A DNA stretch of 64,000 nt, taken from positions 10,428,395 to 10,492,394 of the forward strand of contig OY811976.1 of NCBI GenBank assembly GCA_963681505.1, in the 5' to 3' direction. The stretch is from Eunapius fragilis. Taxonomy: Eukaryota; Porifera; Demospongiae; Spongillida; Spongillidae. The notes below the pieces were generated by a model. That model searched no databases and had not been told where the DNA came from. It saw only the letters and a program-made list of their open reading frames with translations. A program made the position numbers and the translations under genes. Position 1 is the stretch's first letter. The number at the start of each line of letters is the position of its first letter. This document shows positions 11,839 to 48,444 of this stretch, in pieces.

Positions 11839-13540
11839 GACCCCCGCACTTGATGCGTATGGCCCAGATGCAATACATTGCGTATTGCGGTTGGTCCCTC
11901 ATCGAGGGACCAATATTATTCATACGCATCTGTGCCTTGCATCGGCGCTAATGGTCCCTCGAATCCCGTTTATCGCTCCGTACACGCGAGGGACCACTTG
12001 CTCGTGCCCATCTCGCAAGAAGTGAAACAGTTGTAAAGAGCGAGGGCAAGCGTCTACAGACTCCCCATGCATCGACAGGTCTAGACCGAACTTTGTACTC
12101 GTCTATTGAACGCAGTTGTAAAGAGCGAGGGCAAGCGTCTACAGACTCCCCATGCATCGACAGGTCTAGACCGAACTTTGTACTCGTCTATTCAACGCAG
12201 TTGTAAAGAGCGAGGGCAAGCGTCTACAGACTCCCCATGCATCGACAGGTCTAGACCGAACTTTGTACTCGTCTATTGAACGCTCGTCTTCACTTCCGTC
12301 GAAGGTGCGTCCCTATAATCACTATTTTGTACAACGTGTCTGCCGTGCCATGTTCAAGCGTCTAACACATCTGCCGTACCATGTACCAAGTTAGTACACG
12401 TCTGCCGTGCTATGTGCTATCTTCAAACGCGTTTGCCGCGTCGGTTCTACACATATGGCCGATATGGCTTGTCACCCCGTCTTATATGTCTATACACCAA
12501 GCCTCCCACACGACTGGCGATAGATCTGCAAGCTTAGTTCACATCTACAGTGTCATTTTCAATCTTCGTTAGCATCTGCCGCGCGAGTCAAACACACTTC
12601 CGTAACCCCCCCCCCCCCCCCCCACCCACGCTCACGTAGGTTTGGTTTTGATACAAGCTTTGTTCTATTAACCAAGCCTCACACACGACTGGCATGCCAT
12701 GTAAAAGCTTACTCCATATCTGCCGTGCCATGTGCAATCCTCACACACGTATGCAGCGCGAGTCAACCGCACTACACACACACATACACACACATACACA
12801 CACACACACACATGGCCTTGCCACATAGCTTCGTTGATACACCAACATGCCTGAGGCAGACTAAATTTCTTTACTCCTACTAAAAAATAAATATAGGCCT
12901 AAATTATTTTGTCAAGGCCAATAGGGCCTTCCTTAAAAATCACACACAGTTGCCATGGCAGTTTTAAAAAAAAGTTACACAAAACGAAGGTGCACATGTG
13001 GGGATCCCAAACATTTCAGGTTGTGCCACTTTCTACCGCCTGCTATTTACAACCTTAGTTCACATCTGCCGTGCCCCATGTTTCCTAGTATACTTACATT
13101 CGCTTACATAGCCACGGGTACGCATACATAGCCATGGGGCAAGCTTACGTGGTCACGGGTATACTTGCATTCGCTTACATAGCCACGGGTACGCATACAT
13201 AGCCATGGGGCAAGCTTACGTGGTCACGGGTATACTTGCATTAGCTTACATAACCACGGGTACGTAGCCTTTACAACAGACATGGGTACCCTCGTTCAAA
13301 TCCATACATACTACGCCGTCAGCGTTCTAGGTCACGGGCACACATCAACAAGCTATCATTCATACGAGAAAAGCTTAGAGTCACGACACCACTTATGCCT
13401 TCCGTTCGTTTGGCTGCCAATTGAAAATCAATTGATTTAATTGACATACATGTATGGTCCGGGCACGACTAAAATTATTTGTTTATCATCTTCGAGTGAC
13501 TCGCGTTTTGGGCCCAGTGTTGTACTGTGCAACGAATCCT
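11839..13540. repeat. 1.7-kb tandem repeat, copy 1
   Basis: A 1702-bp non-coding unit immediately followed by a second copy. It contains a palindromic segment around GGTCCCTCATCGAGGGACC (11894-11912), a triplicated 85-bp unit, a C-run near 12607, a (CA)n tract near 12775 and two and a half copies of a ~78-bp repeat (13085-13260). No protein gene is supported. Confidence 0.92.
12028..12282. repeat. 85-bp unit in three tandem copies
   Basis: Three near-identical copies starting CAGTTGTAAAGAGCGAGGGC. The same triplet is present at 13730-13984 and 29924-30178. Confidence 0.92.
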
Positions 13541-15240
13541 GACCCCCGCACTTGATGCGTATGGCCCAGATGCAATACATTGCGTATTGCGGTTGGTCCC
13601 TCATCGAGGGACCAATATTATTCATACGCATCTGTGCCTTGCATCGGCGCTAATGGTCCCTCGAATCCCGTTTATCGCTCCGTACACGCGAGGGACCACT
13701 TGCTCGTGCCCATCTCGCAAGAAGTGAAACAGTTGTAACGAGCGAGGGCAAGCGTCTACAGACTCCCCATGCATCGACAGGTCTAGACCGAACTTTGTAC
13801 TCGTCTATTGAACGCAGTTGTAAAGAGCGAGGGCAAGCGTCTACAGACTCCCCATGCATCGACAGGTCTAGACCGAACTTTGTACTCGTCTATTGAACGC
13901 AGTTGTAAAGAGCGAGGGCAAGCGTCTACAGACTCCCCATGCATCGACAGGTCTAGACCGAACTTTGTACTCGTCTATTGAACGCTCGTCTTCACTTCCG
14001 TCGAAGGTGCGTCCCTATAATCACTATTTTGTACAACGTGTCTGCCGTGCCATGTTCAAGCGTCTAACACATCTGCCGTACCATGTACCAAGTTAGTACA
14101 CGTCTGCCGTGCTATGTGCTATCTTCAAACGCGTTTGCCGCGTCGGTTCTACACATATGGCCGATATGGCTTGTCACCCCGTCTTATATGTCTATACACC
14201 AAGCCTCCCACACGACTGGCGATAGATCTGCAAGCTTAGTTCACATCTACAGTGTCATTTTCAATCTTCGTTAGCATCTGCCGCGCGAGTCAAACACACT
14301 TCCGTAACCCCCCCCCCCCCCCCACCCACGCTCACGTAGGTTTGGTTTTGATACAAGCTTTGTTCTATTAACCAAGCCTCACACACGACTGGCATGCCAT
14401 GTAAAAGCTTACTCCATATCTGCCGTGCCATGTGCAATCCTCACACACGTATGCAGCGCGAGTCAACCGCACTACACACACACATACACACACATACACA
14501 CACACACACACATGGCCTTGCCACATAGCTTCGTTGATACACCAACATGCCTGAGGCAGACTAAATTTCTTTACTCCTACTAAAAAATAAATATAGGCCT
14601 AAATTATTTTGTCAAGGCCAATAGGGCCTTCCTTAAAAATCACACACAGTTGCCATGGCAGTTTTAAAAAAAAGTTACACAAAACGAAGGTGCACATGTG
14701 GGGATCCCAAACATTTCAGGTTGTGCCACTTTCTACCGCCTGCTATTTACAACCTTAGTTCACATCTGCCGTGCCCCATGTTTCCTAGTTTACTTACATT
14801 CGCTTACATAGCCACGGGTACGCATACATAGCCATGGGGCAAGCTTACGTGGTCACGGGTATACTTGCATTCGCTTACATAGCCACGGGTACGCATACAT
14901 AGCCATGGGGCAAGCTTACGTGGTCACGGGTATACTTGCATTAGCTTACATAACCACGGGTACGTAGCCTTTACAACAGACATGGGTACCCTCGTTCAAA
15001 TCCATACATACTACGCCGTCAGCGTTCTAGGTCACGGGCACACATCAACAAGCTATCATTACTACGAGAAAAGCTTAGAGTCACGACACCACTTATGCCT
15101 TCCGTTCGTTTGGCTGCCAATTGAAAATCAATTGATTTAATTGACATACATGTATGGTCCGGGCACGACTAAAATTATTTGTTTATCATCTTCGAGTGAC
15201 TCGCGTTTTGGGCCCAGTGTTGTACTGTGCAACGAATCCT
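13541..15240. repeat. 1.7-kb tandem repeat, copy 2
   Basis: About 99% identical by eye to copy 1, and left edge of the large segmental duplication. It contains the 85-bp triplet at 13730-13984. Its 3' part shows the empty target site TTGACATACATG (15141-15152), which is interrupted by the 2-kb insertion in the third copy. Confidence 0.92.
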
Positions 15241-18200
15241 TGTGTTAGCGCCAGGTATACGATGATTATATTTGTATGGTTGCTCTGAACAGAGCAGTAA
15301 TTGTTCAGCACGAATGTCATTTACGGGTGTCTATTTTACTAACATCAAGGCTTGACGTAGTGTACAATAGGTTCAAAGCGCCACTGCATTAGGACGTGTT
15401 GTTGGAAGATTGCGTTGTGCTCTGGCGTATCGTAAGCACCATATAGGACCAATTGCTGCATCAAGCAGACCTCTAGTTACGAGGCAGACCATCCAGCGCG
15501 TACACACTGCACACGCACTCCACACAGATATAAGCTTTGCCCCTCACCTTTTAAAAACCCTCACGTCACTACAATAAGCAGCCTGTACGCTCGCTACCTA
15601 CCAATCTAATCCTTAAAATTTGAATTTGAAATAGTTACTTATTAATAATTCCTTTTAATGCACTTTGTAGCGATTGGCCTTGGTAGCCGAGCTGAGCTGT
15701 TTAAACAGGTACGAAGGGTGGGATATACGTGCCGCACATTTCTGAAGGTGAACAGGGGTACGCGGGAGAGTGTACAACCTATTCCGGAATACAATGCGCG
15801 AGTCCCTTTATGTACAACCACTCGATACTTTGAAATTTGCCATAGACTTGCCTTACACCTTTCATCCTTTAGAAATGTGTGGCAAAAGAGCGAGGACAGA
15901 CTGCCCACGCAAGACCGAACTTTGTTCTCGTCTATTGAACATCCATCGAGGTACGTTCCTAATTACTTCTTTGTACAACGTCCGCACATATGGCCGTTGA
16001 TACAAGTTTTTTCTATTACCTAAGCTTCCCACACGACTGGCGTGCCACATACGAGCTTAATTCACATCTGCTGGGTCACGCTCAATATTATATCCCTAAG
16101 GCGTGCGATTCAAACGCACTACCGTACCTACCTTGTCACCTAAATTAAGTCGTTGTCCATTAATTAACCAGGCTTCAATCACGCGTGTGGCGTGTCTTTT
16201 ACCAACTAGCTTCATACCTGCAGTGCCATGTATAATTTGAACACACGTATGCAGCGGTAGTAAAAAGCACTACAGTACCTGCATATGGCCTTGTCACTTA
16301 GCTAAGGTTACGTGTGCTGCCACGATGGGCTTGTTAGAACGTCTTGATGCACTAAGGGAAGGACCAACCACCCGCCAACCCACCCAACAGACTTACAAAT
16401 TTTCCTTGCATAAATTCTATTGAAGTGCACATACTGGAACTACATCATTTTAAGTGTACACTGTATTACATGTCCTTAGTATGTGAAGAAACATCGCACT
16501 GCGAATTAAAACAACTTGCAATTAGCAAACGACTTAAACAGATTTGTTGACTTAATTACATTCATACTGATGAACCCACAACTGCTTCGTAAGGTTAATA
16601 CATCGCTATAAATAGACAAATCGATTGTATTTCATTTATACCAGCGAGGCCCGGGAACAAAGTACCGCCAAGGTTCATAGCATTATGGCTTTGGGTCCGC
16701 TATGTTCCTCCCATAGCAGGGGTTTTCTTAAGCGTTTTTATTTTTGTGTATCGCAACAATATATTTATTTTATCTCCAGTGTGTTTTACAGTTACCTTAC
16801 AAAGGCTAGGTGCCCCCGCATCACTACTTTTGTACGTCTGCCTGCCGTGCCATGTACAAGCTTTGTACACATCTGCCGTGCCACGTGCAATCCTTAACTG
16901 TGTTTGCAGTGCCGATTCTAATGCACAACCCCCCCCACCCCACATACACACATACTGCCTTGTCTATTATCCAAGCTTTACACACGACAGGCGTGGCACA
17001 TAAGCTTAATGACATCTTTAATCATGCCGATTCTAACGCACTACCCCTCCACTAGCTTAACAAATTACTGGCATGCCATGTAAAAGCAATATCAGCCGTA
17101 CCCAATCTTCGTACACGTCTGCCACGTGATTGAAATGCACTACCCCCACCACCACACAAACACACGCACGCACACGCTCATATATGTCACGTAGCCTTTG
17201 TCATGGATACAGATACACGCTTTGAACATGCCTAAACGGCAGACCGTGTATATATATTTACCCCTACTAAAAATTTACTTACTACCATGCGTTGCTCTAT
17301 TGTTTTGATAAGGCCACTAGGTCCTTCCTTAAAATCACACATATTTGCCATGCAGTGCAGTTAAAAATAGTACACAAAAAAAAGGTTTCCAATTTTTTTG
17401 ATTTTGGCTCTTACAAAGGTTCTAAGTAAAAAGATATGTAGGAAAATAACAATATGCATGAATTCTTTGGGTAACCAACACATACCTATACATGTATGTA
17501 AGATACACTGTAGATGTACGCATTATAAGAATCTGCTGTGCTATATAGGTAACACCTACTCGCGAGATTACTGTGCCAGGCAGAGAGACCTTATAAGTTT
17601 ACAGTAGTAATAAATTTAATTTAAACGAGAGACTCATTAACTTACAAGTACCCTATGGGCGGTCCTGTTTGAATTGGTTCAAATACATTGTACCAAATAC
17701 ATAATGGTATTCGGTCCCATCTCACCCAAAATAAGATCTATTAAGATGTAATAGTTTTGAACACAAATGTCAAGTCTGTTGTCAATAGCTTCAGAGGGTT
17801 ATGCACACATGCATTATAATTGACACATTGTGGTCTGCTTAAATATATGGGAACCACCATAACAATAAGATTTATTGAAGCAATAAAATTAATAGTTGGT
17901 ACTTGTAGGTTATTATAAATATTTTCTTCTACGTTTCCAGGTGGACCAGCAGTGCTTTGAAGGCATGCATCATTTTTGACCCTCATCTGAAAAAAAAAAA
18001 AAAGTTATCACCAAGTGGGAACAAAATACAGCCATGCAAACAGGCAAATATGAAGGTGACATTGAAGCAGTGGCTATTGCAAAGTAGGGTTGGTAAGTAC
18101 ATAATTATACTAAGACAAATTGCCTTGCTTGCATAATTCTCACCTCCCCTTTGTACTGTGGCTATAGACTTGCATTTAAAATGTTTACACCGTCACAGGC

Positions 18201-28540: not shown

Positions 28541-29112
28541 TTTAGTCACTTGGCGAAGGCTATCCGTGCTACGACGATGGGCATGTCAGAACTTCTTCAT
28601 GTGAATAGGAGGGCCAGGACCAACCACCCGCCAACCCAACAGACTTTGAATAGTACGAGGCACACCCACGCCGAACTAGGGCATTCCTACAGTTTAGGTT
28701 CCGGCGATTAAATTCACGAGCATTGAAAGGTTTCGAGGTCCAACGGCTGATTTAGACATTATGAATATAATTATAGTCGTAAGGCAGTAAGGCTTCCTGC
28801 TTGATGCTGAGCACGCGAGCAAATGCTATTTTACCGCCAAAACTTTAAAACCTTGCTCGGGGTCTACAATTCAGGATAGCCCACAAAACCACAACGGCAC
28901 ACCACAAACCCCGATGCCGCTGCCGCTGGTATCACTCACAACCACAATCATGGTCTCACGCAGTACCTTCGAATTTTTGTCACGTACACGCAGCGCGCCA
29001 CCATCTTGTTTCCGATCCCAACGTGTACGGCCTCGAAGGGAGCGCTAAGACTGCATGGCTGCTTAGATGCTATTGCCCACAGAGCACTATATTATACAAC
29101 GCTGAAGTCTAA
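28541..29112. other. Unique spacer with a GC-richer CpG segment
   Basis: Bases ~28880-29060 are locally GC- and CpG-richer and contain, on the minus strand, AAGATGGTGGCGCGC, which resembles a YY1-type core-promoter motif. No convincing first exon follows on that strand, so no promoter is annotated. Confidence 0.35.
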
Positions 29113-29734: not shown

Positions 29735-31347
29735 GACCCCCGCACTTGATGCGTATGGCCCAGATGCAATACATTGCGTATTGCGGTTGGTCCCTCATCG
29801 AGGGACCAATATTATTCATACGCATCTGTGCCTTGCATCGGCGCTAATGGTCCCTCGAATCCCGTTTATCGCTCCGTACACGCGAGGGACCACTTGCTCG
29901 TGCCCATCTCGCAAGAAGTGAAACAGTTGTAAAGAGCGAGGGCAAGCGTCTACAGACTCCCCATGCATCGACAGGTCTAGACCGAACTTTGTACTCGTCT
30001 ATTGAACGCAGTTGTAAAGAGCGAGGGCAAGCGTCTACAGACTCCCCATGCATCGACAGGTCTAGACCGAACTTTGTACTCGTCTATTGAACGCAGTTGT
30101 AAAGAGCGAGGGCAAGCGTCTAGAGACTCCCCATGCATCGACAGGTCTAGACCGAACTTTGTACTCGTCTATTGAACGCTCGTCTTCACTTCCGTCGAAG
30201 GTGCGTCCCTATAATCACTATTTTGTACAACGTGTCTGCCGTGCCATGTTCAAGCGTCTAACACATCTGCCGTACCATGTACCAAGTTAGTACACGTCTG
30301 CCGTGCTATGTGCTATCTTCAAACGCATTTGCCGCGTCGGTTCTACACATATGGCCGATATGGCTTGTCACCCCGTCTTATATGTCTATACACCAAGCCT
30401 CCCACACGACTGGCGATAGATCTGCAAGCTTAGTTCACATCTACAGTGTCATTTTCAATCTTCGTTAGCATCTGCCGCGCGAGTCAAACACACTTCCGTA
30501 ACCCCCCCCCCCCCCCCCCCCCACCCACGCTCACGTAGGTTTGGTTTTGATACAAGCTTTGTTCTATTAACCAAGCCTCACACACGACTGGCATGCCATG
30601 TAAAAGCTTACTCCATATCTGCCGTGCCATGTGCAATCCTCACACACGTATGCAGCGCGAGTCAACCGCACTACACACACACATACACACACATACACAC
30701 ACACACACACACATGGCCTTGCCACATAGCTTCGTTGATATACCAACATGCCTGAGGCAGACTAAATTTCTTTACTCCTACAAAAAAATAAATATAGGCC
30801 TAAATTATTTTGTCAAGGCCAATAGGGCCTTCCTTAAAAATCACACACAGTTGCCATGGCAGTTTTAAAAAAAAGTTACACAAAACGAAGGTGCACATGT
30901 GGGGATCCCAAACATTTCAGGTTGTGCCACTTTCTACCGCCTGCTATTTACAACCTTAGTTCACATCTGCCGTGCCCCATGTTTCCTAGTATACTTACAT
31001 TCGCTTACATAGCCACGGGTACGCATACATAGCCATGGGGCAAGCTTACGTGGTCACGGGTATACTTGCATTCGCTTACATAGCCACGGGTACGCATACA
31101 TAGCCATGGGGCAAGCTTACGTGGTCACGGGTATACTTGCATTAGCTTACATAACCACGGGTACGTAGCCTTTACAACAGACATGGGTACCCTCGTTCAA
31201 ATCCATACATACTACGCCGTCAGCGTTCTAGGTCACGGGCACACATCAACAAGCTATCATTCATACGAGAAAAGCTTAGAGTCACGACACCACTTATGCC
31301 TTCCGTTCGTTTGGCTGCCAATTGAAAATCAATTGATTTAATTGACA
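29735..31347. repeat. 1.7-kb repeat, copy 3, left part
   Basis: Matches 13541-15146, including the 85-bp triplet (29924-30178), the C-run (30503) and the (CA)n tract (30674). It is interrupted at 31347 by a 2049-bp insertion and resumes at 33397. Confidence 0.92.
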
Positions 31348-33490: not shown

Positions 33491-36400
33491 TGTGTTAGCG
33501 CCAGGTATACGATGATTATATTTGTATGGTTGCTCTGAACAGAGCAGTAATTGTTCAGCACGAATGTCATTTACGGGTGTCTATTTTACTAACATCAAGG
33601 CTTGACGTAGTGTACAATAGGTTCAAAGCGCCACTGCATTAGGACGTGTTGTTGGAAGATTGCGTTGTGCTCTGGCGTATCGTAAGCACCATATAGGACC
33701 AATTGCTGCATCAAGCAGACCTCTAGTTACGAGGCAGACCATCCAGCGCGTACACACTGCACACGCACTCCACACAGATATAAGCTTTGCCCCTCACCTT
33801 TTAAAAACCCTCACGTCACTACAATAAGCAGCCTGTACGCTCGCTACCTACCAATCTAATCCTTAAAATTTGAATTTGAAATAGTTACTTATTAATAATT
33901 CCTTTTAATGCACTTTGTAGCGATTGGCCTTGGTAGCAGAGCTGAGCTGTTTAAACAGGTACCAAGGGTGGGATATACGTGCCGCACATTTCTGAAGGTG
34001 AACAGGGGTACGCGGGAGAGTGTACAACCTATTCCGGAATACAATGCGCGAGTCCCTTTATGTACAACCACTCGATACTTTGAAATTTGCCATAGACTTG
34101 CCTTACACCTTTCATCCTTTAGAAATGTGTGGCAAAGGAGCGAGGACAGACTGCCCACGCAAGACCGAACTTTGTTCTCGTCTATTGAACATCCATCGAG
34201 GTACGTTCCTAATTACTTATTTGTACAACGTCCGCACATATGGCCGTTGATACAAGTTTTTTCTATTACCTAAGCTTCCCACACGACTGGCGTGCCACAA
34301 ACGAGCTTAATTCACATCTGCTGGGTCACGTTCAATATTATATCCCTAAGACGTGCGATTCAAACGCACTACCGTACCTACCTTGTCACCTAAATTAAGT
34401 CGTTGTCCATTAATTAACCAGGCTTCACTCACGCGTGTGGCGTGTCTTTTACCAGCTAGCTTCATACCTGCAGTGCCATGTATAATTTGAACACACGTAT
34501 GCAGCGCTAGTAAAAAGCACTACAGTACCTGCATATGGCCTTGTCACTTAGCTAAGGTTACGTGTGCTGCCACGATGGGCTTGTTAGAACGTCTTGATGC
34601 ACTAAGGGAAGGACCAACCACCCGCCAACCCACCCAACAGACTTACAAATTTTCCTTGCATAAATTCTATTGAAGTGCACATACTGGAACTACATCATTT
34701 TAAGTGTACACTGTATTACATGTCCTTAGTATGTGAAGAAACATCGCACTGCGAATTAAAACAACTTGCAATTAGCAAACGACTTAAACAGATTTGTTGA
34801 CTTAATTACATTCATACTGATGAACCCACAACTGCTTCGTAAGGTTAATACATCGCTATAAATAGACAAATCGATTGTATTTCATTTATACCAGCGAGGC
34901 CCGGGAACAAAGTACCGCCAAGGTTCATAGCATTATGGCTTTGGGTCCGCTATGTTCCTCCCATAGCAGGGGTTTTCTTAAGCGTTTTTATTTTTGTGTA
35001 TCGCAACAATATATTTATTTTATCTCCAGTGTGTTTTACAGTTACCTTACAAAGGCTAGGTGCCCCCGCATCACTACTTTTGTACGTCTGCCTGCCGTGC
35101 CATGTACAAGCTTTGTACACATCTGCCGTGCCACGTGCAATCCTTAACTGTGTTTGCAGTGCCGATTCTAATGCACAACCCCCCCCACCCCACATACACA
35201 CATACTGCCTTGTCTATTATCCAAGCTTTACACACGACAGGCGTGGCACGTAAGCTTAATGACATCTTTAATCATGCCGATTCTAACGCACTACCCCTCC
35301 ACTAGCTTAACAAATTACTGGCATGCCATGTAAAAGCAATATCAGCCGTACCCAATCTTCGTACACGTCTGCCACGTGATTGAAATGCACTACCCCCACC
35401 ACCACACAAACACACGCACGCACACGCTCATATATGTCACGTAGCCTTTGTCATGGATACAGATACACGCTTTGAACATGCCTAAACGGCAGACCGTGTA
35501 TATGTATTTACCCCTACTAAAAATTTACTTACTACCATGCGTTGCTCTATTGTTTTGATAAGGCCACTAGGTCCTTCCTTAAAATCACACATATTTGCCA
35601 TGCAGTGCAGTTAAAAATAGTACACAAAAAAAAGGTTTCCAATTTTTTTGATTTTGGCTCTTACAAAGGTTCTAAGTAAAAAGATATGTAGGAAAATAAC
35701 AATATGCATGAATTCTTTGGGTAACCAACACATACCTATACTTGTATGTAAGATACACTGTAGATGTACGCATTATAAGAATCTGCTGTGCTATATAGGT
35801 AACACCTACTCGCGAGATTACTGTGCCAGGCAGAGAGACCTTATAAGTTTACAGTAGTAATAAATTTAATTTAAACGAGAGACTCATTAACTTATAAGTA
35901 CCCTATGGGCGGTCCTGTTTGAATTGGTTCAAATACATTGTACCAAATACATAATGGTATTCGGTCCCATCTCACCCAAAATAAGATCTATTAAGATGTA
36001 ATAGTTTTGAACACAAATGTCAAGTCTGTTGTCAATAGCTTCAGAGGGTTATGCACACATGCATTATAATTGACACATTGTGGTCTGCTTAAATATATGG
36101 GAACCACCATAACAATAAGATTTATTGAAGCAATAAAATTAATAGTTGGTACTTGTAGGTTATTATAAATATTTTCTTCTACGTTTCCAGGTGGACCAGC
36201 AGTGCTTTGAAGGCATGCATCATTTTTGACCCTCATCTGAAAAAAAAAAAAAAATTATCACCAAGTGGGAACAAAATACAGCCATGCAAACAGGCAAATA
36301 TGAAGGTGACATTGAAGCAGTGGCTATTGCAAAGTAGGGTTGGTAAGTACATAATTATACTAAGACAAATTGCCTTGCTTGCATAATTCTCACCTCCCCT

Positions 36401-40015: not shown

Positions 40016-40223
40016 CTGATATCGGAGGATATCTAGCAAGAAAAAAAGTAGCGATAAAGATGTCAACAGCACACCGTATATCTATATGGTATACTATCAT
40101 GCCATATATGTCCTTTTCAAACTGAATAACTTGCGTCACGCGCATGGCAAAGGAACTGCTGGGGGTAAAGACGATCGTGACCTAATTGCGGTTAGCAATC
40201 GTTTGTGTTATAAAAAGTTTAAC

Positions 40224-41969
40224 ATGGCATCTTTTCGTTGCAAACTGTGTTCCTTTGTCGGCAATACCCGGGGAGAATTGAGACATCATTGCAGTACCAC
40301 CCACATCACCACACATACTTTTCACTCTGATGATGGCAAGGTGAAAGTAACCGTAACCAAAGAGAACGGATATTTCACTTGCGTGTGCGGTGGCAAGACC
40401 ATCAGCAGCAAGGCGTTCTACAGCCACAAGGGGTGCTATTTTCCAGACGCTAGCATCCCCGCCACCAATGAAAGTAGTCACGACGATGGAAGACCAACTC
40501 CAACTGACACTTCATCCGCTTGTGCACGCACTGATCTGAACGAGCAAGTTCTAAGTGTGGGATCGTGTACAACACAATTGCAAGTTCCTGGTACCTCTAC
40601 TTCTGTAGACAATACTACATTAACAGCGGATACCGCTGCTGCTGACCATTGCGACCTTCTGGACAAGTACAATCTCGTTTATCGTCCAGAATACGGCCTT
40701 CTCACGTGTCGATTGTGCATTAGTGTGCTTGGGAAGGGCTTCTCTGATCACATGAGGAGGATGCATAAGGTGCACATTAAACATCCAGACGAGGCCAAAA
40801 TACGGGACTTGGCGTTTTCAGCTTTTAGTCTGTACTGGTTAGGTGGACAACCACTGTTACCAGCTCTTGATTTTGTACCTGTGTTCGATGGCTTCAAGTG
40901 TGCCTCGTGTTCGCACTATGGAAAATCACTGCGTCACGTTAGGGACCACACCAAGAAGAACCACGATTGCGACAACGCTCCGATTGAGTGTAAGGTGCAA
41001 ACCATTTCGGCTACCTGCTGTAAGACCTACTTTGGTGTTCACGATGCTTCAAGCACGCTTGTAACACCTCTAGCAGACGACATTGCTGCTGCCGTTAAAC
41101 GAGCAATGAAGGAAGTTATTCAGATCCATCCGTCTGCAGAACCCGTGAAGCGAAGGAACCTTTTCTACGTTCAGGCCGGTTGGTACCCAGAACCGGAGCG
41201 GGCGGACAAATACAGCCACGTAGACAAGGCTGCCACATTGCAACTACCGCAAAAGGATGAAGCAGACTATTCTACCATATGTGCTATACATGCCATTTTC
41301 CGCGATGCAGTTGTTGCCATAAACAACCGTGATTTTGCATTTCGAGCTGTGCTAGGGGACACTGATAAACGGTTCAAGGCTTTTTCCACGCTGCAGAACG
41401 ATGCTTCCATTAACATGTACTCCCAGACGTGGACGAAGCTAGTGTACTTTGCTCGTAATTTGATCACCCTACGTGTCATTCCACTTGAAAACGATGTTAG
41501 AAGCGTCATCGAAGAGGCATTTCGAACACCAGATGCTTGTACCATTTTCGAACTCATGCAACATCTCGTCGCGCAACGTACAACGCTAGATTCTGCGATC
41601 ATCCCACTGTTCATACGCTTCAGCTGTTGTTTGACAAACGGACGTTTGATGCCACCTGAGGATGTGTCACGTCTGTGCGCTAAGGTAGCGTACGGTATGA
41701 AGCTAACGGTACTAGAAGTAGCTTCGAACAATGCAGATGGGAGTCGCAGGGTGGAAGCTATGAAGACACTCAAGTCGTTCGTTGAACTGGATAATTACAA
41801 CGTGTTTTCATTCGTATGTCGAATACAATCCCTCGCTGAGTGGGTTGTCAAGCACAGTGACAGGCTACCAAAGATTGCCAGACTAGGGCGTGTAACCTTT
41901 TTTATAAATCAAAATCGATTTTTTTCGACTATGAAAAAAGTCCAATCGATTAGGGTTAGGGTTATTTAG
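40224..41969 (+). CDS. Zinc-finger protein with OrsD-like (DUF3505) region, 3'-truncated
   Basis: A single 581-codon frame from an ATG at 40224. An in-frame extension to 40086 exists, but the ATG directly before the first zinc finger fits better. Zinc-binding pairs: C6/C9 with H22/H27; C53/C55 with H68/C71; C162/C165 with H176/H181; C226/C229 with H242/H247. The last two, with the following ECKVQT..YFGV stretch (~255-271), match the layout of the OrsD family (PF12013), known in fungi and some animals and in fungi sometimes joined to helicase domains. The rest (~280-560) is alpha-helical and unrecognised. The last ~10 codons are translated telomeric repeat: TTAGGG sequence starts at 41950 and supplies the stop, so the natural C-terminus is missing. 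Its role is unknown; nucleic-acid binding is inferred from the fingers. Confidence 0.72.
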   Translation: MASFRCKLCSFVGNTRGELRHHCSTTHITTHTFHSDDGKVKVTVTKENGYFTCVCGGKTISSKAFYSHKGCYFPDASIPATNESSHDDGRPTPTDTSSACARTDLNEQVLSVGSCTTQLQVPGTSTSVDNTTLTADTAAADHCDLLDKYNLVYRPEYGLLTCRLCISVLGKGFSDHMRRMHKVHIKHPDEAKIRDLAFSAFSLYWLGGQPLLPALDFVPVFDGFKCASCSHYGKSLRHVRDHTKKNHDCDNAPIECKVQTISATCCKTYFGVHDASSTLVTPLADDIAAAVKRAMKEVIQIHPSAEPVKRRNLFYVQAGWYPEPERADKYSHVDKAATLQLPQKDEADYSTICAIHAIFRDAVVAINNRDFAFRAVLGDTDKRFKAFSTLQNDASINMYSQTWTKLVYFARNLITLRVIPLENDVRSVIEEAFRTPDACTIFELMQHLVAQRTTLDSAIIPLFIRFSCCLTNGRLMPPEDVSRLCAKVAYGMKLTVLEVASNNADGSRRVEAMKTLKSFVELDNYNVFSFVCRIQSLAEWVVKHSDRLPKIARLGRVTFFINQNRFFSTMKKVQSIRVRVI

Positions 41970-42001
41970 GGTTAGGGTTAGGGTTAGGGTTAGTGTTAGG
42001 G
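41950..42001 (+). repeat. Interstitial telomeric tract 1, ~8 TTAGGG units
   Basis: About eight TTAGGG units with two variant units, G-rich strand on the plus strand. The left junction cuts the OrsD-like gene; the right junction is the 3' side of Penelope-like DNA lying on the minus strand. Confidence 0.95.
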
Positions 42002-42421
42002 CCCCCACGGGTCCTGGTCCCAACCCCACTCCCGATCCCGTAACTGGTGTTTCTTGTCCTTTAGGACTCACAGTCTGTGCATACGTTCTTTTAACACCAG
42101 CGGTGTGTGGTAGTGTGTTTGCGTTTGTGTGTGTCTGTGTGTATGCAATGTCAGTAGGCGCTTGCGCTTGCTTGGGCGCCTGCGCAACCCCGGCTACCCT
42201 CTCCACTCCTCTGCTTTCTTCTACAATCCCCTCTATAGCCATCAACATAGTACCCCCCTCTACTTCATCCCCACTGCCGTCTACATCATTCTCACTCATA
42301 TTCCTATTAGCGCCCACCTTACTTGTTGCGTCCAGGGCGTTCTTCAGGTTCTTCACTGGAGTTCTTTTAACGGGCATTCCACGCACGAATACCCTTCCCA
42401 CGGTAACAAATTGAAAGTAAA
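42002..42421 (-). pseudogene. Truncated N-terminal part of a second Penelope-like copy
   Basis: Minus-strand frame reading VTVGRVFVRGMPVKRTPVKN, then a low-complexity Gly/Glu/Thr/Ala region, running without stop into the telomeric tract, where it translates as Leu-Thr repeats. It lies downstream of the intact polyprotein and its terminal repeat, as expected for the start of a next head-to-tail copy cut off by the telomeric junction. The GRVFV motif parallels GRIFV in the ORF1-like frame at 10751. It is clearly incomplete. Confidence 0.5.
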
Positions 42422-42433
42422 CTTGATAGGATG

Positions 42434-42464
42434 CACAACGTTTCGGCCAGAGGCCTTTGTCAAG
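42434..42464 (-). ncRNA. Hammerhead-ribozyme-like motif in the terminal repeat
   Basis: The minus strand reads CTTGACAAAGGCC-TCT-GGCCGAAACGTTGTG: a GGCC/GGCC stem followed by GAAACGTTGTG, like the 3' half of the hammerhead core known from Penelope-like terminal repeats. The 5' core box deviates from CTGATGA, so a degenerate or inactive copy is likely. ACTTG and CAAGT on either side could form a closing stem. Confidence 0.35.
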
Positions 42465-42545
42465 TGCAAGTACAGAAAATTCAAAAAAATGAATGAATAC
42501 GTAATGATACTTCCACGCATGCGTGGGAAAAAAAACAAAAAACAT

Positions 42546-43033
42546 GGTGCGCGTTAATTAGAGAAACATTATTACAAAGTGTGTGTGACTATGCAGAGAA
42601 TGTTTTAAGTATAGGAAACATGGTTCCAAAATAAAAGACAGAATTTATAAAAAATTAATTAATGAGTGAATAAATAAATAAATAATAAAAAATATCTCCA
42701 AAGTAAATAAAAAAATATATACAAAAATAAAGAACTCCAGTTCATCTATTGACTTGGGTAAAGACGGTATGTGGGTGGATTTCCTTAACGGGTGCTGTTG
42801 CGTCCTAGTTAGGTTAGGTTTGGTTTTGGGGGGGTGAGTAGATGGATTTGACTGTCTGAAGTGGATGCTGTTGTGTCCTAGTTAGCTTAGGTTTAGCTTT
42901 GGGGTGGTGAGTAGATGGAACTCTAATATTGTTACGTCCAAGTTAGGTTAGGTTTAGTTTGGAGAAGGTAAAGAGATGGATTAGCCATAATATAAGATGG
43001 TGAATGTGATGGCTGTATTGCCTTTTGACCGGG
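42546..43033 (-). other. 3' untranslated part of the Penelope-like element
   Basis: Between the stop codon of the polyprotein and the terminal repeat. It contains an A/T-rich (AATA)n segment (42660-42740) and three tandem ~65-75-bp copies (about 42795-42985) whose minus-strand sequence includes AACCTAACCTAAC or close variants, similar to the C-rich telomere strand. Confidence 0.6.
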
Positions 43034-45382
43034 TCACAGATAATAATTCAGTCCTAGTGGTAACAATGATTTCATCCTTTTAATCCACAGGGTTTCACAC
43101 CTCCTTCTCTCATGGAAGTTCGCCACCTGTTGCACTATCGTGAGGCTTGCTTCATGGAAATTATGTGACTTTCTCCTGTAGTGTCTGTATATGGGCTTGT
43201 TATCCCCTCCTTCTAATTTGTTCCGATGTGCCCTCATCCTACGTCCTACTGTGGTGCCAGTTTCACCCACATACTGTATCCCACATTGGCTGCATGTGAT
43301 AATATATATCACCTCCATACTTTTGCACGTATACGTGCCTTCGATGGGGTATGTTTGGTGTGATGCTGTTGAATGTATGTGTGAAACGTTTTTGATGAGT
43401 TTGCAGCACTCACACTGGGGGTAGTTGCAGATTGTGTTGTTCGTGGGGAAACAGATGTGAGATTCATTGAGGCCAATGTCTGGGGGATTGGGTACGCATT
43501 TCAGTTTAGCCCTCACTACCATCTTAGACACTGATTTAGCAACGGTGTATGATGAAAGGGGACCCCCATCAAACTTATCGGCAAGGTCAGGCAAATTTGT
43601 AACAACACCCCAAGATTGGTTGAGGATCCAGCCAATAGGTTTTGTCTTCCCGCTGAACTGCTGTACCATCACAGGTCTACGAACGCGATCGTGCACTTTA
43701 TCCTCCAACAGGAGTTTACGGTTCTCAAACAGCCTGGTTTGTACCCACTTGTCTAGGAGGTGGGGAGGATATCCCCTGAGTTTTAAAGCCTCCTTCAGTT
43801 TCTGTATGGTTTGTGTGTACGTAACCTGGTCACTGGAGTTACGGATGAACCGTGTGCATTCGCCTACAACAATACCCTTAAAGACGGAAGGGGGGTGGGA
43901 TGAGGAATAATGTAGGTAATTCATTTGATTCGTCTGTTTAAAATATGGCCTGATGTCAAGGATCCCGCTGTTTTTGAACCTATCACCCTTGTACAGTGTC
44001 ACGTCAAGGAAGTTGACTTCGGAGTCGGATGTAGTGATTGTGTATTGTATCCTATCCTTCTGCCTATTTAGTCTTTCAAAGGCTCTGTCAAGGTTTTCTT
44101 GGCCGTGAGGCCATGTTAGGAGGATATCATCAATATACCTGAGGTAAATATCAGGCTTAAGCTGCTCATTTAGCCAGAACTCTTCCTCAAGGTGCGCCAT
44201 ATATAATATGGCGAAAGGGGGGGCCATACTTGTGCCCATGGCAGTACCATACTTCTGGCGATAGGACTTCCCATTGAAATTGAATATGTTATGTTTTAGT
44301 ACATACTTAAACATTTCTCTGACCACACTGGGTGGCAGCCAAAAGGGTACCTCCTCCTTGTATTTCTCCATGTACGATAGGGCTACTTCCACTCCCTCGT
44401 CTTGGGGGATGTTCGTGTATAAACTCCCTACATCCATTGTCACCAGAAGGCTAGAGGGCTGGATTGTCGTCGACTCAATGATGTTTACAAGATGTTTTGA
44501 GTCTTTGACGTAAGATTTCACCCTCTTAACGATGGGGTTAAGGATATAGCTGATGAACCTAGAGATGTTTTCGTTGGGACCACTGCATCCAGACACAATG
44601 GGTCTGGTGGGTATGGGTGTAACCTTCTTGTGTGTTTTCGGTAAGGTATAGAAAGCCTGTGATCTTACTTTGGCACACGGTCTGAGGAAGTTGCTTGTGA
44701 TTTTATCGATTACCCCTCTCTCGGTAAGGTGGTCGATAAATTCATGGATATGTTGGGCTAAGGCTTTAGTGTAATCGCCATTAAGTTGTTCATACGTATC
44801 CGCGTCGTTGAGGTGGACCATGCAAGCTGTTATATAGTCGGTAGTGTCTTGCATGACTATGATTTGGTCTTTATCGGCTGGTTTGATGGTTAGGGAGGTG
44901 TCTTTCCCGAGAGCGATCAACGTTTGCATTTCTCCATTAGTGTAAACGGATCTGGTGGAATCACCCATGTGCCTTTCTAGCCGATCGCGGGTCAAGGTTA
45001 TGTACTCCTCTATATCTGGAATATTACAGGGCCCAGAACCCTTTATTTTTTTACTCCCCAACAGTGGATGGCCCCCTTTCCATACGCCACCTCCTCCCTT
45101 TGCCAACTTCCTGATTCTGGATGCAAACCTCTCAAATTCATTCCTCACTTCCCCGTCACTTGGACCCCTCCCCCACGGCACAAACCCCATACCTTTACCC
45201 AAAACGTCGAGTGTTTTTTTGTCAAGTGCCTTAGATGACAGGTTTAGTACCCCCCTCTGGCAGACCTCTGCCAGCCTCTTCCTCTTCCCCTCATTCCTCC
45301 TCTGCTCATGCTTCCGTCTATGGGATACCTTCCACGAGGTCCGTTTTTTGGCCCATAACCCCCTCTTCCTATCACGATCCAA
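43034..45382 (-). CDS. Penelope-like element polyprotein (RT + GIY-YIG endonuclease)
   Basis: A 782-codon frame encoding a retroelement reverse transcriptase with a C-terminal nicking endonuclease. N-terminal region with the Penelope signature VLNLSS..L (~45-55). RT motifs: LPKTHK (247-252), RPIVSG (260-265), TMDVGSLYTNIP (315-326, first catalytic Asp), GTSMAPPFAILY (383-394), YIDD (416-419, catalytic Asp pair), VNFLD (456-460). A Cys cluster CNYPQCECC (652-660) precedes the GIY-YIG domain, with IYIITC at ~693 and YVGETG at ~704, then Arg, His and Glu residues in expected places to ~764. The frame opens with TTG, not ATG; an overlapping frame starting with ATG at 45447 continues the likely N-terminus, so the 5' end is probably truncated or frameshifted. 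The catalytic part is intact. Telomeric tracts lie on both sides. Confidence 0.93.
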   Translation of the reverse strand: MDRDRKRGLWAKKRTSWKVSHRRKHEQRRNEGKRKRLAEVCQRGVLNLSSKALDKKTLDVLGKGMGFVPWGRGPSDGEVRNEFERFASRIRKLAKGGGGVWKGGHPLLGSKKIKGSGPCNIPDIEEYITLTRDRLERHMGDSTRSVYTNGEMQTLIALGKDTSLTIKPADKDQIIVMQDTTDYITACMVHLNDADTYEQLNGDYTKALAQHIHEFIDHLTERGVIDKITSNFLRPCAKVRSQAFYTLPKTHKKVTPIPTRPIVSGCSGPNENISRFISYILNPIVKRVKSYVKDSKHLVNIIESTTIQPSSLLVTMDVGSLYTNIPQDEGVEVALSYMEKYKEEVPFWLPPSVVREMFKYVLKHNIFNFNGKSYRQKYGTAMGTSMAPPFAILYMAHLEEEFWLNEQLKPDIYLRYIDDILLTWPHGQENLDRAFERLNRQKDRIQYTITTSDSEVNFLDVTLYKGDRFKNSGILDIRPYFKQTNQMNYLHYSSSHPPSVFKGIVVGECTRFIRNSSDQVTYTQTIQKLKEALKLRGYPPHLLDKWVQTRLFENRKLLLEDKVHDRVRRPVMVQQFSGKTKPIGWILNQSWGVVTNLPDLADKFDGGPLSSYTVAKSVSKMVVRAKLKCVPNPPDIGLNESHICFPTNNTICNYPQCECCKLIKNVSHIHSTASHQTYPIEGTYTCKSMEVIYIITCSQCGIQYVGETGTTVGRRMRAHRNKLEGGDNKPIYRHYRRKSHNFHEASLTIVQQVANFHERRRCETLWIKRMKSLLPLGLNYYL

Positions 45383-45461
45383 CTATCATCTGTTTCCACC
45401 AAGTGGTGGTTCTCCACACTCTGAGTTCCAGGAATACCCTTTTTCATTTGATGTTCCTTCG
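45383..45461 (-). pseudogene. Residual 5' end of the Penelope-like element
   Basis: About 80 bp between the polyprotein frame and the telomeric tract. In another frame it starts with ATG at 45447 and then gives a Gly/Arg-rich peptide overlapping the polyprotein start. No terminal repeat is present here, so the element is 5'-truncated at the telomeric junction. Confidence 0.5.
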
Positions 45462-45490
45462 TAGGGTTAGGGTTAGGGTTAGGGTTAGGG
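45462..45490 (+). repeat. Interstitial telomeric tract 2, ~5 TTAGGG units
   Basis: Directly follows the 5' end of the Penelope-like element and opens subtelomeric unit 1. Same orientation as tract 1. Confidence 0.95.
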
Positions 45491-46810
45491 TGGATTTATG
45501 GCCCTGGCATAGTTTCTATTTACCATGTTATGGAGCTTCTTGTAGGTTACAAGTGGGGGCGGATACGCCCGTCACGTTTAATCACGTGATATGAGGGAGG
45601 CGAAATTTGTGTGCAACCCCCAGTGTGTTTTCCAAACTAGTACATCTCTTTACAAGTAGCTAGAGCATGTGATAGCTAGTGATAATTCAGTTATTCAGTT
45701 CTATCAGACTCTCCAAGCTGGACAACCACATATACTAAGGACGGCTGATGGCCACTGATATTTTCAACCTGAAGACTTTGGCTTGGAGCAGGTGAAGGGA
45801 GCATGGGTGACATCTCAGCAGAATGGCCCTAGCATATTCTGCGTCAGTAACGTGATACCCCCAGATTTTTAATATTCTGAGATAGGGGCTGGAGAAGAGA
45901 AAAGGGATGGAATGTGTTATTAAGTGGTACATAAAAAAGGACAAGTTATAAGACAAATAAAATATTGAATTTGTGTGTTTGTTCAACAGTTACATGATGA
46001 AATCATATCACATGAAGGGAGGGGGGTGGGGTGAAAGAGGGACAGACATAGGTGTGGCAATGTTGCTAGTCACCTCACTCCTAATTCTCTGTCTCCCTCC
46101 CCCACCCTCACCATATCTCCTGAACACCCTCATTCTCCACACACACACACACACACAAATACACACACATGCAAACATACGTACACATTGCCCCACACAC
46201 ATGCACAAACACAGTGACACACATGCACACAACCTTTGCTGGTCCTTCGATCAGTTTAGTAAGCTCGGTCGGCATCCAGCCAAAATAGCCAACCCTTCTC
46301 TTACAGCCAAACGTTTCTCAGCTAGAGAAGTACTGATAGAGTGTTGAGGTAGTAATGGTTGTGTGTTGAAGTGAGAGTGTATCTCAGGGAAGCCTTTGAG
46401 GAATGGTCTGGACACTCCTGTAAATGAACCACTAGCTCAACAAGCGAGTTCTCAACTTTATTCACAAGCACCCACGGACTGTGAACAAGAACAAGAAAAA
46501 GGGTTAACAGCTGAAGAGTCGGACATAGACATTCACAAGTATATACATTCATTAATACATTTGAAATTATGAATCTTAACGGTTTTGTTAATGCGTCGGT
46601 TTATTGTTGATCGGTTGATCTGGGTAGATCGCAATTAGGCTGCTCACGTGAGTACCATTTATATTCAATGGCGACGTACAACAGGCAAGAATATATGACA
46701 GGCGGATGGTAGGACCTACCAGTGTGATCACAGCGTAGTTGGATAATCATTTCTCAACAGGCTCAATTCATATTAGCTGTAATTGTGAGAAAATTGTCAA
46801 TTCTTATAAG

Positions 46811-48365
46811 TGCACACAACCCCCTCAACACCCCCAGTGCACACCCATAGGTATGTACACATCCCCTCAACACCCCCAGTGCACACTCATAGGTATGCAC
46901 ACATCCCCCTCAACACCCCCTACGCACACCCATAGCTATGCACACATCCGCCTCAACACCCCCAGCGCACACCCATAGGTATGTACACATCCCCCTCAAG
47001 ACCCCCAGTGCACACACATAGCTATGCACACATCCCCCTCAACACCCCCAGTGCACACCCATAGGTATGTACACATCCCCTCAACACCCCCCAGCGCACA
47101 CCCATAGCTATGCACACATCCCCCTCAACACCCCCAGTGCACACCCATAGGTATGTACACATCCCCTTCCCCCCCCACCCCCCAGCGCACACCCATAGGT
47201 ATGCACACATCCCCCTCAACACCCCCAGTGCACACACATAGCTATGTACACATCCCCCTCAATACTCCCAGTGCACACCCTTAGGTATGTACACATCCCC
47301 TCAACACCCCCAGCGCACACCCACATCCCCTCAACACCCCCCAGCTCACACCCACATCCCCTCAACACCCCCCAGCTCACACCCACATCCCCTCAACACC
47401 CCCAGTGCACACTCATAGGTATGCACACATCCCCCTCAACACCCCCTACGCACACCCATAGCTATGCACACATCCGCCTCAACACCCCCAGCGCACACCC
47501 ATAGGTATGTACACATCCCCCTCAAGACCCCCAGTGCACACACATAGCTATGCACACATCCCCCTCAACACCCCCAGTGCACACCCATAGGTATGTACAC
47601 ATCCCCTCAACACCCCCCAGCGCACACCCATAGGTATGTACACATCCCCTTCCCCCCCCCCCCCCCCCCCAGCGCACACCCATAGGTATGCACACATCCC
47701 CCTCAACACCCCCAGTGCACACACATAGCTATGCACACATCCCCCTCAACACCCCCAGTGCACACCCATAGGTATGTACACATCCCCTTCCCCCCCCCCC
47801 CCCCCAGCGCACACCCATAGGTATGCACACATCCCCCTCAACACCCCCAGTGCACACACATAGCTATGTACACATCCCCCTCAATACTCCCAGTGCACAC
47901 CCTTAGGTATGTACACATCCCCTCAACACCCCCAGTGCACACCCATAGGTATGCACACATCCCCTTCAACACCCCCAGTGCACACCCACATCCCCTCAAC
48001 ACCCCCCAGCTCACACCCACATCCCCTCAACACCCCCAGCGCACACCCATAGGTATGCACACATCCCCCTCAACACCCCCAGCGCACACCCATAGGTATG
48101 CACACATCCCCCTCAACACCCCCAGTGCACACACATAGCTATGTACACATCCCCCTCAATACTCCCAGTGCACACCCTTAGGTATGTACACATCCCCCTC
48201 AACACCCCCAGTGCACACCCATACGTATTTACACATCCCCCTCAACACCCCCAGCGCACACACATAGCTATGCACACAACCCCCTCAACACCCCCAGTGC
48301 ACACCCATACGGTATGTACACATCCCCTCAACACCCCCAGTGCGCACACATAGCTATGTACACAT
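46811..48365. repeat. ~43-bp C-rich minisatellite, array 1
   Basis: About 36 copies of a 42-43-bp unit with the phrases GTGCACACCCATAGGTATG and ACACATCCCCTCAACACC. Two main variants (ATAGGTATG and ATAGCTATG) alternate irregularly. Several units are expanded into long C-runs (47168, 47650, 47790), and shorter units appear near 47320 and 47990. Confidence 0.93.
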
Positions 48366-48425
48366 CCCACCTCTAAACCTTTCCAATTGGAAATAAGGTG
48401 TTATTACCTATTCTACCAGCCTGAG

Positions 48426-48444
48426 GTTAGGGTTAGGGTTAGGG
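48426..48444 (+). repeat. Interstitial telomeric tract 3, 3 units
   Basis: Boundary between subtelomeric units 1 and 2, same orientation as the others. Confidence 0.9.

What the first reader, a model, noticed from the sequence alone, without database searches (positions are those of the whole stretch)
41950..45490. Endonuclease-bearing Penelope-like element enclosed by telomeric tracts in the telomere-primed orientation
Seen: (TTAGGG)n on the plus strand at 41950-42001 and 45462-45490, and between them a minus-strand element with intact RT and GIY-YIG motifs. If reverse transcription is primed by the 3' end of a G-rich telomeric overhang, the cDNA joined after TTAGGG must be the complement of the RNA, 3' end first; the element lies exactly so, and a fresh TTAGGG tract follows its 5' end. 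Known: telomere-attached Penelope-like elements (Athena, Coprina) lack the endonuclease. A full GIY-YIG element in this arrangement would bridge the two classes.
Basis: partly seen in the sequence, partly recalled or inferred. Interest (0 to 1): 0.9.

Follow-up and report, generated by a model that had tools for sequence, protein, structure and literature searches.

The report
Endonuclease-bearing Penelope retroelements at sponge telomeres
In what appears to be a freshwater sponge, jumping genes that still carry their own DNA-cutting domain sit on chromosome ends, wedged between telomere repeats, although elements of this type were thought to insert inside chromosomes while only relatives without the cutter attach to ends.

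Summary
In detail: a minus-strand Penelope-like element (PLE) with an open RT + GIY-YIG frame lies between plus-strand (TTAGGG)n tracts, at the right end of scaffold C6 of what is probably Eunapius fragilis, a freshwater sponge.

It is not a one-off. Two more copies (99.8% identical) lie at C6-left and C5-right; two other PLE families with the same catalytic residues (28-29% identical) lie at C3-left, C8-left and C19-left. All 7 copies point the G-strand-primed way, with telomere-type sequence at both junctions; at least 5 are 5'-truncated. One 178-bp fragment lies inside C8's terminal telomere array; two families are stacked at C3-left. Of 69 coding PLE loci found, 10 lie within 75 kb of scaffold ends, all 10 in the expected orientation.

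Corrections: the window copy lacks most of an upstream ORF1, and a subtelomeric repeat follows its 5' tract. The 3' junction lies inside ORF1, at a telomere-complementary motif. More diverged copies are internal.

Best reading: telomeric 3' ends, some freshly formed on broken chromosomes, prime reverse transcription at this motif and telomerase caps the cDNA. Overhang versus endonuclease nick as primer is open. New variant of a known kind.

The parts
41950..41989 (+). Proximal (TTAGGG)n tract, with one irregular unit: the presumed primer side
41990..42001 (+). TTAGTGTTAGGG; in sense CCCTAACACTAA: telomere-complementary motif belonging to the element's 3' end, where reverse transcription is inferred to start
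   Evidence: TTAG[T/C]GTTAGGG at the 3' end of 6 of 8 copies read, a shorter part in 2; read as 'GALTLT' within ORF1 in diverged copies
42002..45461 (-). Body of the Penelope-like element (3460 bp); 5' end (45461) capped by TTAGGG, 3' end at 42002
42002..42377 (-). N-terminal part of ORF1 (begins MPVKRTPVKN...), cut off at the telomere-complementary motif
42438..42463 (-). Hammerhead-core-like motif (TTGACAA-stem-GAAAC) upstream of the ORF1 start
   Evidence: no Rfam match
42790..42982 (-). Tandem repeats of about 65-70 bp in the 3' non-coding region
   Evidence: self-matches
43034..45382 (-). ORF2: 782-codon RT + GIY-YIG open frame (opens on TTG after stops; start codon uncertain)
44045..44479 (-). 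RT domain as matched by Pfam RVT_1 (aa 302-446)
43070..43312 (-). GIY-YIG endonuclease domain as matched by Pfam PF01541 (aa 691-771)
45383..45461 (-). Probable remnant of the C-terminal end of ORF1, truncated by the distal telomere tract
   Evidence: alignment to the C16 copy and ORF1 frames
45462..45491 (+). Distal (TTAGGG)5 tract capping the element's 5' end
45492..48424 (+). Subtelomeric repeat unit whose first 609 bp recur (identity rounding to 100%) at many scaffold ends in the orientation TTAGGG-repeat-terminus; next unit starts 48425
40086..41969 (+). Proximal flank: open frame with an OrsD match that runs into the TTAGGG tract

Best explanation
This is a copy of an endonuclease-bearing (EN+) Penelope-like retrotransposon that was added to a telomere. 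The 3' end of the telomeric G strand, most likely the natural overhang of an old telomere or of a short one freshly formed on a broken chromosome, pairs with a C-strand-like motif (CCCTAAC[A/G]CTAACC) inside the element RNA, within the ORF1 coding region, and primes reverse transcription there. The first-strand cDNA becomes the new G strand, and synthesis usually stops before the RNA 5' end. Telomerase then extends the cDNA 3' end with TTAGGG, often at 1-3 nt of shared sequence. A subtelomeric repeat later joined that tract, as at many other ends. Shown: the anatomy, orientation, multiple copies, truncation points and the motif within ORF1. Inferred: RNA template, primer, telomerase step, and that the endonuclease is not needed for the cut.
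For: Seven copies of three families at six scaffold ends, 7 of 7 in the primed orientation and 7 of 7 with TTAGGG at the 5' end. Truncation inside the element is shown against a longer sister copy for 4 (C6L, C5R, C8L, C19L) and inferred for the window copy from lost ORF1. 3' junctions fall at one motif per family; no shared proximal flank was found for the three window-family copies. At C6L and C5R the proximal flank is a repeat with unoccupied relatives in the window, and the relatedness stops where the telomere tract begins; at C5R only about 9 nt of telomere precede the element's own motif. C8L: a 178-bp element 3' end lies between about 1.58 kb of terminal CCCTAA (sampled at five places) and 408 bp of proximal CCCTAA with a few irregular units. 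C3L: two families stacked, separated by (CCCTAA)21. 10 of 10 coding PLE loci within 75 kb of scaffold ends have the expected strand. A lizard PLE starts reverse transcription internally, in an AC-rich stem-loop 111-118 bp into its ORF (PMC11167929, main-text section read); the motif here is likewise AC-rich and inside an ORF, and falls in a predicted stem-loop in 4 of 5 copies folded. 7 of 44 scaffold ends read have TTAGGG arrays in their last 60-80 bases.
Against: No reads, RNA or biochemistry. Copies could also have spread by recombination between telomeric tracts, as the neighbouring subtelomeric repeat evidently has. More diverged relatives lie inside chromosomes, one PLE-B piece as close as 96%, and 2 of 10 internal PLE-array pairs are in the opposite orientation. 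All three families keep the endonuclease catalytic residues, which is odd if it is not used. The C5R proximal flank breaks after ATT, the motif cut by the lizard PLE endonuclease, so an element-made break is possible. ORF1 continuing through the motif is seen only in diverged, partly broken copies of one family; the PLE-B frame from its first ATG does not reach its motif. A telomerase search found nothing but was uninformative.
Confidence: 0.6

Rival explanations
1. Endonuclease-primed insertion: the GIY-YIG domain nicks the G strand within double-stranded TTAGGG arrays and the nick primes reverse transcription, as TRAS and SART do with their own endonuclease in silkworm TTAGG arrays. The orientation would be the same.
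For: RT and GIY-YIG catalytic residues invariant in three families, the other two 28-29% identical to the first, as if the domain is in use. The C8L fragment has telomere on both sides. TRAS/SART precedent (PMC4700185, passages).
Against: The TRAS/SART copies at telomeres are reported as full length, whereas here at least 5 of 7 copies are 5'-truncated. The 5' junctions share 1-3 nt with telomere, by eye, at varying phases, which suits telomerase capping. Proximal tracts as short as about 9 nt beyond the element's own motif (C5R) are poor duplex targets. No target-site duplication can be read in a tandem repeat.
Confidence: 0.22
2. Recombination capture: the copies spread by strand invasion of a telomere end into a telomere-like motif of an existing element (break-induced replication), then terminal loss and telomerase healing.
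For: The adjacent subtelomeric repeat is at about 19 scaffold ends, with identity rounding to 100% over 609 bp in 36 of 43 rows, following TTAGGG where the junction was read. Three window-family copies differ by only 1-3 mismatches. Internal copies contain the motif TTAGCGTTAGGG.
Against: Captured DNA would be of any kind and would run past element ends. All 7 pieces are PLEs of three different families, and none extends beyond the element. Each truncated copy compared has its own truncation point.
Confidence: 0.14
3. Ordinary subtelomeric insertion or assembly artefact, with TTAGGG tracts next to it by accident.
For: The assembly is scaffolded from 825 contigs, sequenced from ultra-low-input libraries (PMC12616128, passages).
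Against: The same anatomy at six ends in three families; no N in the window or in the C6L, C5R and C3L stretches read; 10 of 40 loci on C1+C2 near arrays against 0.47 expected.
Confidence: 0.04

Closest known systems
EN-deficient telomere-attached PLEs (Athena/Terminons of bdelloid rotifers; the fungal PLE of Mycosphaerella graminicola)
   Same: Telomeric sequence in reverse complement at the element 3' end, 3' end pointing away from the telomere, 5' truncation by telomeric repeats, head-to-tail arrays, priming from exposed chromosome ends or breaks (PMC6431247, PMC4522978 and PMC3846280, passages)
   Different: Those lack the GIY-YIG domain fused to the RT. Here it is present with its catalytic residues, and the 3' junction lies within ORF1
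Canonical EN+ PLEs (Penelope/Poseidon, Neptune)
   Same: RT followed by C-terminal GIY-YIG; Cys-rich stretch between RT and EN, as stated for Neptune (PMC3846280, passages); hammerhead-core-like motif near the ORF start; internal start of reverse transcription (PMC11167929, main-text section)
   Different: The lizard PLE studied homes to AT-rich sites and EN+ PLEs are described as inserting within chromosomes; the near-identical copies here are at telomeres. No phylogeny was built
TRAS/SART telomere-repeat LINEs of silkworm
   Same: Element-encoded endonuclease plus telomere-repeat targets (PMC4700185, passages)
   Different: Non-LTR elements with another endonuclease; reported full length at telomeres, whereas these are mostly 5'-truncated
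Degraded GIY-YIG PLEs next to telomere-like repeats in lake sturgeon
   Same: EN+ PLE bounded by telomere-like repeats, five contigs (PMC12031113, passages)
   Different: Not intact, next to a herpesvirus whose own ends are TTAGGG repeats; the authors treat such PLEs as random inserters. No orientation or copy table was seen in the passages read
HeT-A/TART/TAHRE of Drosophila
   Same: Retroelements stacked at chromosome ends
   Different: They replace telomerase; here pure TTAGGG arrays remain between and beyond elements. Compared from general knowledge and the abstract opening of PMC5537684

Membership tests
Penelope-like elements, EN+ | RT domain with catalytic Asp and YxDD | tested here: met
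   D317 and YIDD 416-419 invariant in three families; RVT_1 26.6 bits, below cutoff, for the window protein; 36.4 and 40.7 bits, above cutoff, for PLE-B and PLE-A
Penelope-like elements, EN+ | C-terminal GIY-YIG endonuclease | tested here: met
   Window protein 29 and 32.7 bits, above the 22.6 cutoff. PLE-B 20.3 and PLE-A 14.9 bits, below cutoff, with the catalytic residues aligned
Penelope-like elements, EN+ | RT groups with PLE/telomerase RTs in a phylogeny | not tested
   No reference PLE sequences were at hand; PDB, viral and prokaryote searches gave no PLE relative
Neptune-like PLEs | Cysteine-rich stretch between RT and EN (PMC3846280) | tested here: met
   C652, C657, C660 and C686 invariant in three families; clade membership itself untested
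Penelope-like elements | Hammerhead ribozyme motif near the ORF start | tested here: inconclusive
   Core-like motif found in 9 of 10 window-family stretches scanned, plus PLE-A; PLE-B did not meet the scan pattern. No Rfam hammerhead match
EN-deficient telomeric PLEs (Athena, Terminons, Coprina) | Absence of the endonuclease domain | tested here: not met
   GIY-YIG present
EN-deficient telomeric PLEs (works like) | 3' end complementary to telomere, G-strand-primed orientation, 5' ends capped by telomere repeats | tested here: met
   7 of 7 near-identical copies
TRAS/SART-like | Endonuclease cuts telomere repeat DNA | not testable with these tools
   needs biochemistry

The most novel reading that the evidence does not exclude
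Several deeply diverged EN+ PLE lineages in one sponge have become telomere-specific by turning the PLE-type internal reverse-transcription start site, within the ORF1 coding sequence, into a telomere-complementary template. They form stacked telomere-element arrays alongside telomerase and seize freshly healed chromosome ends: a living intermediate between chromosome-inserting PLEs and end-attaching, telomerase-like ones.
Probability: 0.35. Interest if true: 0.92.

Novelty: new variant of a known kind. Interest (0 to 1): 0.8.

Why it matters
The usual division is that PLEs with an endonuclease integrate within chromosomes and those without it are confined to ends. Here endonuclease-bearing families behave like the end-attaching kind. 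This makes testable how PLEs, the retroelements closest to telomerase, moved between the two life styles, and whether telomere attachment came before loss of the endonuclease. The ORF1-embedded telomere motif suggests a simple route: an AC-rich internal start site drifting into a telomere complement. It also suggests that such elements can work on chromosomes that carry ordinary TTAGGG arrays.

Tried and rejected
Chance: rejected, 0 of 100 shuffles. TTAGGG as purely flanking telomere: rejected, since the last TTAGTGTTAGGG is element sequence. Full-length element: rejected, most of ORF1 missing. The shared 243-bp 3' flank of the C16 and C1:11.58M copies first looked like target specificity; it is ORF1 sequence following the motif. 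Relatives in viral and prokaryote contigs: none confirmed. Rfam: nothing in window 41900-45550; the microRNA matches at C3-left are below their gathering scores and the best fall on a long hairpin matched on both strands. Telomerase RBD family: 0 matches, but it rang in 0 of 14 control genomes, so uninformative. PDB: only weak RT matches. The promoter scan of 42000-42100 was of no use here. A DNA alignment with strands mixed was discarded. No structure prediction, covariation test or phylogeny was run. The 2021 paper on EN+ PLEs (msab225/PMC8557442) is not held. Gladyshev & Arkhipova 2007 was seen only as cited in other papers.

Not-in-print statement: the searches (open-licence PMC only) listed no paper that I recognised as reporting intact EN+ PLEs at telomeres; I judged most listed papers by title and abstract opening. 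Subscription papers are mostly not held.
Full report
WHAT AND WHERE. The window is G000:C6:10428395-10492394, the right end of scaffold C6, whose length is 10,492,394. The genome has 218,937,333 bases in 24 records, of which C24 is 28.5 kb. The identity is inferred from sizes, not sequence. That paper's main text has no word beginning with 'telomer'. Below, L and R mean the left and right end of a scaffold.

THE OBSERVATION. Both TTAGGG tracts are where stated and are not chance (0 of 100 shuffles). The minus-strand frame 43034-45382 carries RT and GIY-YIG.

OTHER COPIES. A search with the 3' 501 bp gave 18 matches; 11 are family-like (>=71% identity over >=120 bp) and 7 are short matches of 42-48 bp. 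Three are essentially identical: the window (C6R), C6L and C5R. C6L is truncated at element position 1366 and C5R at 1923; against the window copy they differ by 3 mismatches in 2095 and by 1 mismatch plus 2 gap positions in 1538. C5R ends directly in about 115 bp of terminal telomere with one irregular unit. No shared proximal flank was found for the three; each joins the same element 3' end to a TTAGGG tract of its own length. The element's 5' 562 bp were found at only 2 places, C6R and C16.

WHAT THE FLANKS SHOW. The last 62 bp of the C6L flank have three unoccupied relatives inside the window (79-94% identity), and the last 72 bp of the C5R flank have two (86%); relatedness stops where the telomere tract begins. 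The window's own flank is an open frame running into the tract. So these ends look like broken chromosomes healed with short telomere tracts before or as the element was added; the relatives are repeats, not the alleles. At C5R only about 9 nt of telomere precede the element's motif, and the break follows ATT.

TWO MORE FAMILIES. A protein search (59 rows; 58 of 214 candidates scored) found two open frames at C3L. From the scaffold end inward the order is: subtelomeric repeat, CCCTAACCCTAACCCTA, PLE-B (903 codons stop to stop), (CCCTAA)21, PLE-A (824 codons stop to stop), (CCCTAA)6. They are 29% and 28% identical to the window protein, with the RT and GIY-YIG catalytic residues aligned. Their 3' ends recur at 100% identity at C19L (746 of 746 bp) and C8L (178 of 1065 bp); PLE-B also has a 96% piece of 356 bp inside C1 and three weaker ones. 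PLE-B at C19L is 5'-truncated, capped by four CCCTAA units, then the subtelomeric repeat; its 3' side has only CCCTAACCTTAACC before unique sequence. PLE-A at C8L is a 178-bp piece inside the telomere array: CCCTAA repeats at every stretch sampled of C8:1-1578 (1-60, 341-400, 761-840, 1161-1220, 1501-1578), the fragment, 408 bp of CCCTAA repeats with a few irregular units, then unique sequence.

TABLE OF THE SEVEN. Orientation as predicted for G-strand priming: 7 of 7. TTAGGG at the 5' end: 7 of 7. Telomere-type sequence at the 3' end: 7 of 7. Truncation shown against a longer sister copy: 4 of 7 (C6L, C5R, C8L, C19L); the window copy is inferred to be truncated because relatives have ORF1; for the two C3L copies truncation could not be judged. 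Shared bases at the four junctions, by eye: 2, 3, 1, 1.

GENOME-WIDE TESTS. I merged the rows of three protein searches (58 of 214, 55 of 234 and 50 of 244 candidates scored) by hand into 69 coding loci. Within 30 kb of scaffold ends: 7, all as expected. Within 75 kb: 10, all as expected; two of these, at C23L, may be one element. On C1 and C2, for which the listing runs to the end (44 arrays of three or more units), 10 of 40 PLE loci have an array within 6 kb, mean 0.47 in 5000 random placements (p about 2e-4, the smallest value possible); 8 of the 10 are in the consistent orientation and 2 opposite. The loci are not all independent.

SUBTELOMERE. The block following the distal tract gave 43 matches (40 of 80 candidates scored) at about 19 scaffold ends by my count, right ends on plus and left ends on minus, plus a few internal places. 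It shows that telomere-adjacent DNA is exchanged between ends in this genome, so recombination must be kept as a rival. Of 44 scaffold ends read (C23 not read), 7 have TTAGGG arrays in their last 60-80 bases.

ORF1 AND THE 3' JUNCTION. The C1:19.41M and C1:19.50M copies carry ORF1-like coding sequence, broken by stops, upstream of the RT frame; C16 has a short match there; C16 and C1:11.58M carry related ORF1 sequence just after the motif. The element's 3' segment holds the first 376 nt of ORF1 (MPVKRTPVKN...). In telomeric copies it is cut at CCCTAACACTAACC. In C16, C1:11.58M and C1:10.22M an open frame continues through the equivalent stretch (GALTLT.. or GALTQT..); C16 has a frame change between the ORF1 start and the motif, C1:11.58M is truncated upstream, and the C1:10.22M frame ends soon after. 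So the junction is best read as an internal site of the RNA. This fits the lizard element PAc, where reverse transcription starts in an AC-rich stem-loop 111-118 bp into the ORF and needs the first 172 nt of the ORF (PMC11167929; main-text section read). Single-sequence folds put the motif in a similar stem-loop in 4 of 5 window-family copies; C1:10.22M folds differently. No covariation test was made. PLE-A's 3' frame also runs into its motif; PLE-B's frame from its first ATG stops before it.

MECHANISM. Shown: anatomy, orientation, repetition across families, truncation, capping. Inferred: RNA template, telomeric 3' end as primer, telomerase capping. TERT and telomerase RNA genes are reported from other sponges (PMC8480181, passages), though the telomerase search here was uninformative. 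I favour a free telomeric end because short proximal tracts on broken flanks, and truncated copies capped at variable phase, look like end additions. Retention of the endonuclease in three diverged families is the best argument for a nick. Recombination is disfavoured because only PLE sequence was captured, never more than the element.

KNOWN OR NEW. EN-deficient telomeric PLEs carry a reverse-complement telomeric stretch at the 3' end, are mostly 5'-truncated by telomeric repeats and form arrays (PMC6431247, passages), and are described as priming from deprotected telomeres or breaks and largely confined to chromosome ends (PMC3846280, passages). The elements here work like these but keep the endonuclease, so they are not members of that group. 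The nearest precedent found is degraded GIY-YIG PLEs bounded by telomere-like repeats in sturgeon (PMC12031113, passages). In eight library searches I recognised no report of intact EN+ PLEs at telomeres; key subscription papers were not readable.

LIMITS. Scaffolds were built from 825 contigs from ultra-low-input libraries. The stretches read at C6R, C6L, C5R and C3L have no N. No reads, no transcripts, no phylogeny.

Noticed in passing
window 42438-42463 and equivalents in L031, L033, L034, L036, L038, L039, L041, L043: Hammerhead-core-like motif upstream of ORF1 in which the usual C3 and G8 are U and A in all 9 window-family stretches that matched the scan (10 scanned); PLE-A has the canonical C and G (core numbering recalled and from PMC11167929). 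Possibly a natural compensatory C3-G8 to U3-A8 change.
   Followed up: partly
window 45492-51361; G000 C3, C6, C10, C16, C19 and other ends: A roughly 3-kb subtelomeric unit with a 43-bp minisatellite, its first 609 bp at identity rounding to 100% between many scaffold ends; internal copies at C9:2.02M, C11:0.46M and C4:13.77M suggest old ends or mis-joins.
   Followed up: partly
G000 C1 (11.58M, 14.5M, 19.4-19.5M): Clusters of diverged PLE copies, some near interstitial TTAGGG arrays, on the largest chromosome, possibly relics of former chromosome ends after fusion.
   Followed up: partly
window 16332-16625, 28584-28645, 34582-34875; L031 and L033 flanks: Unoccupied relatives of the repeats that flank the C6L and C5R copies; relatedness stops where the telomere tract begins, and the C5R break follows ATT.
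   Followed up: partly
window 40086-41969: An open frame with an OrsD match runs straight into the proximal TTAGGG tract, as if a gene was cut by chromosome breakage and healing.
   Followed up: no
L044 593-705 (C3 left end): Long near-perfect hairpin matching microRNA models on both strands below their gathering scores; looks like a small inverted-repeat element.
   Followed up: no
window 12028-14964 and 29924-31165: Matching 85-bp and 71-bp tandem arrays recur in blocks starting at about 12.0, 13.7 and 29.9 kb.
   Followed up: no
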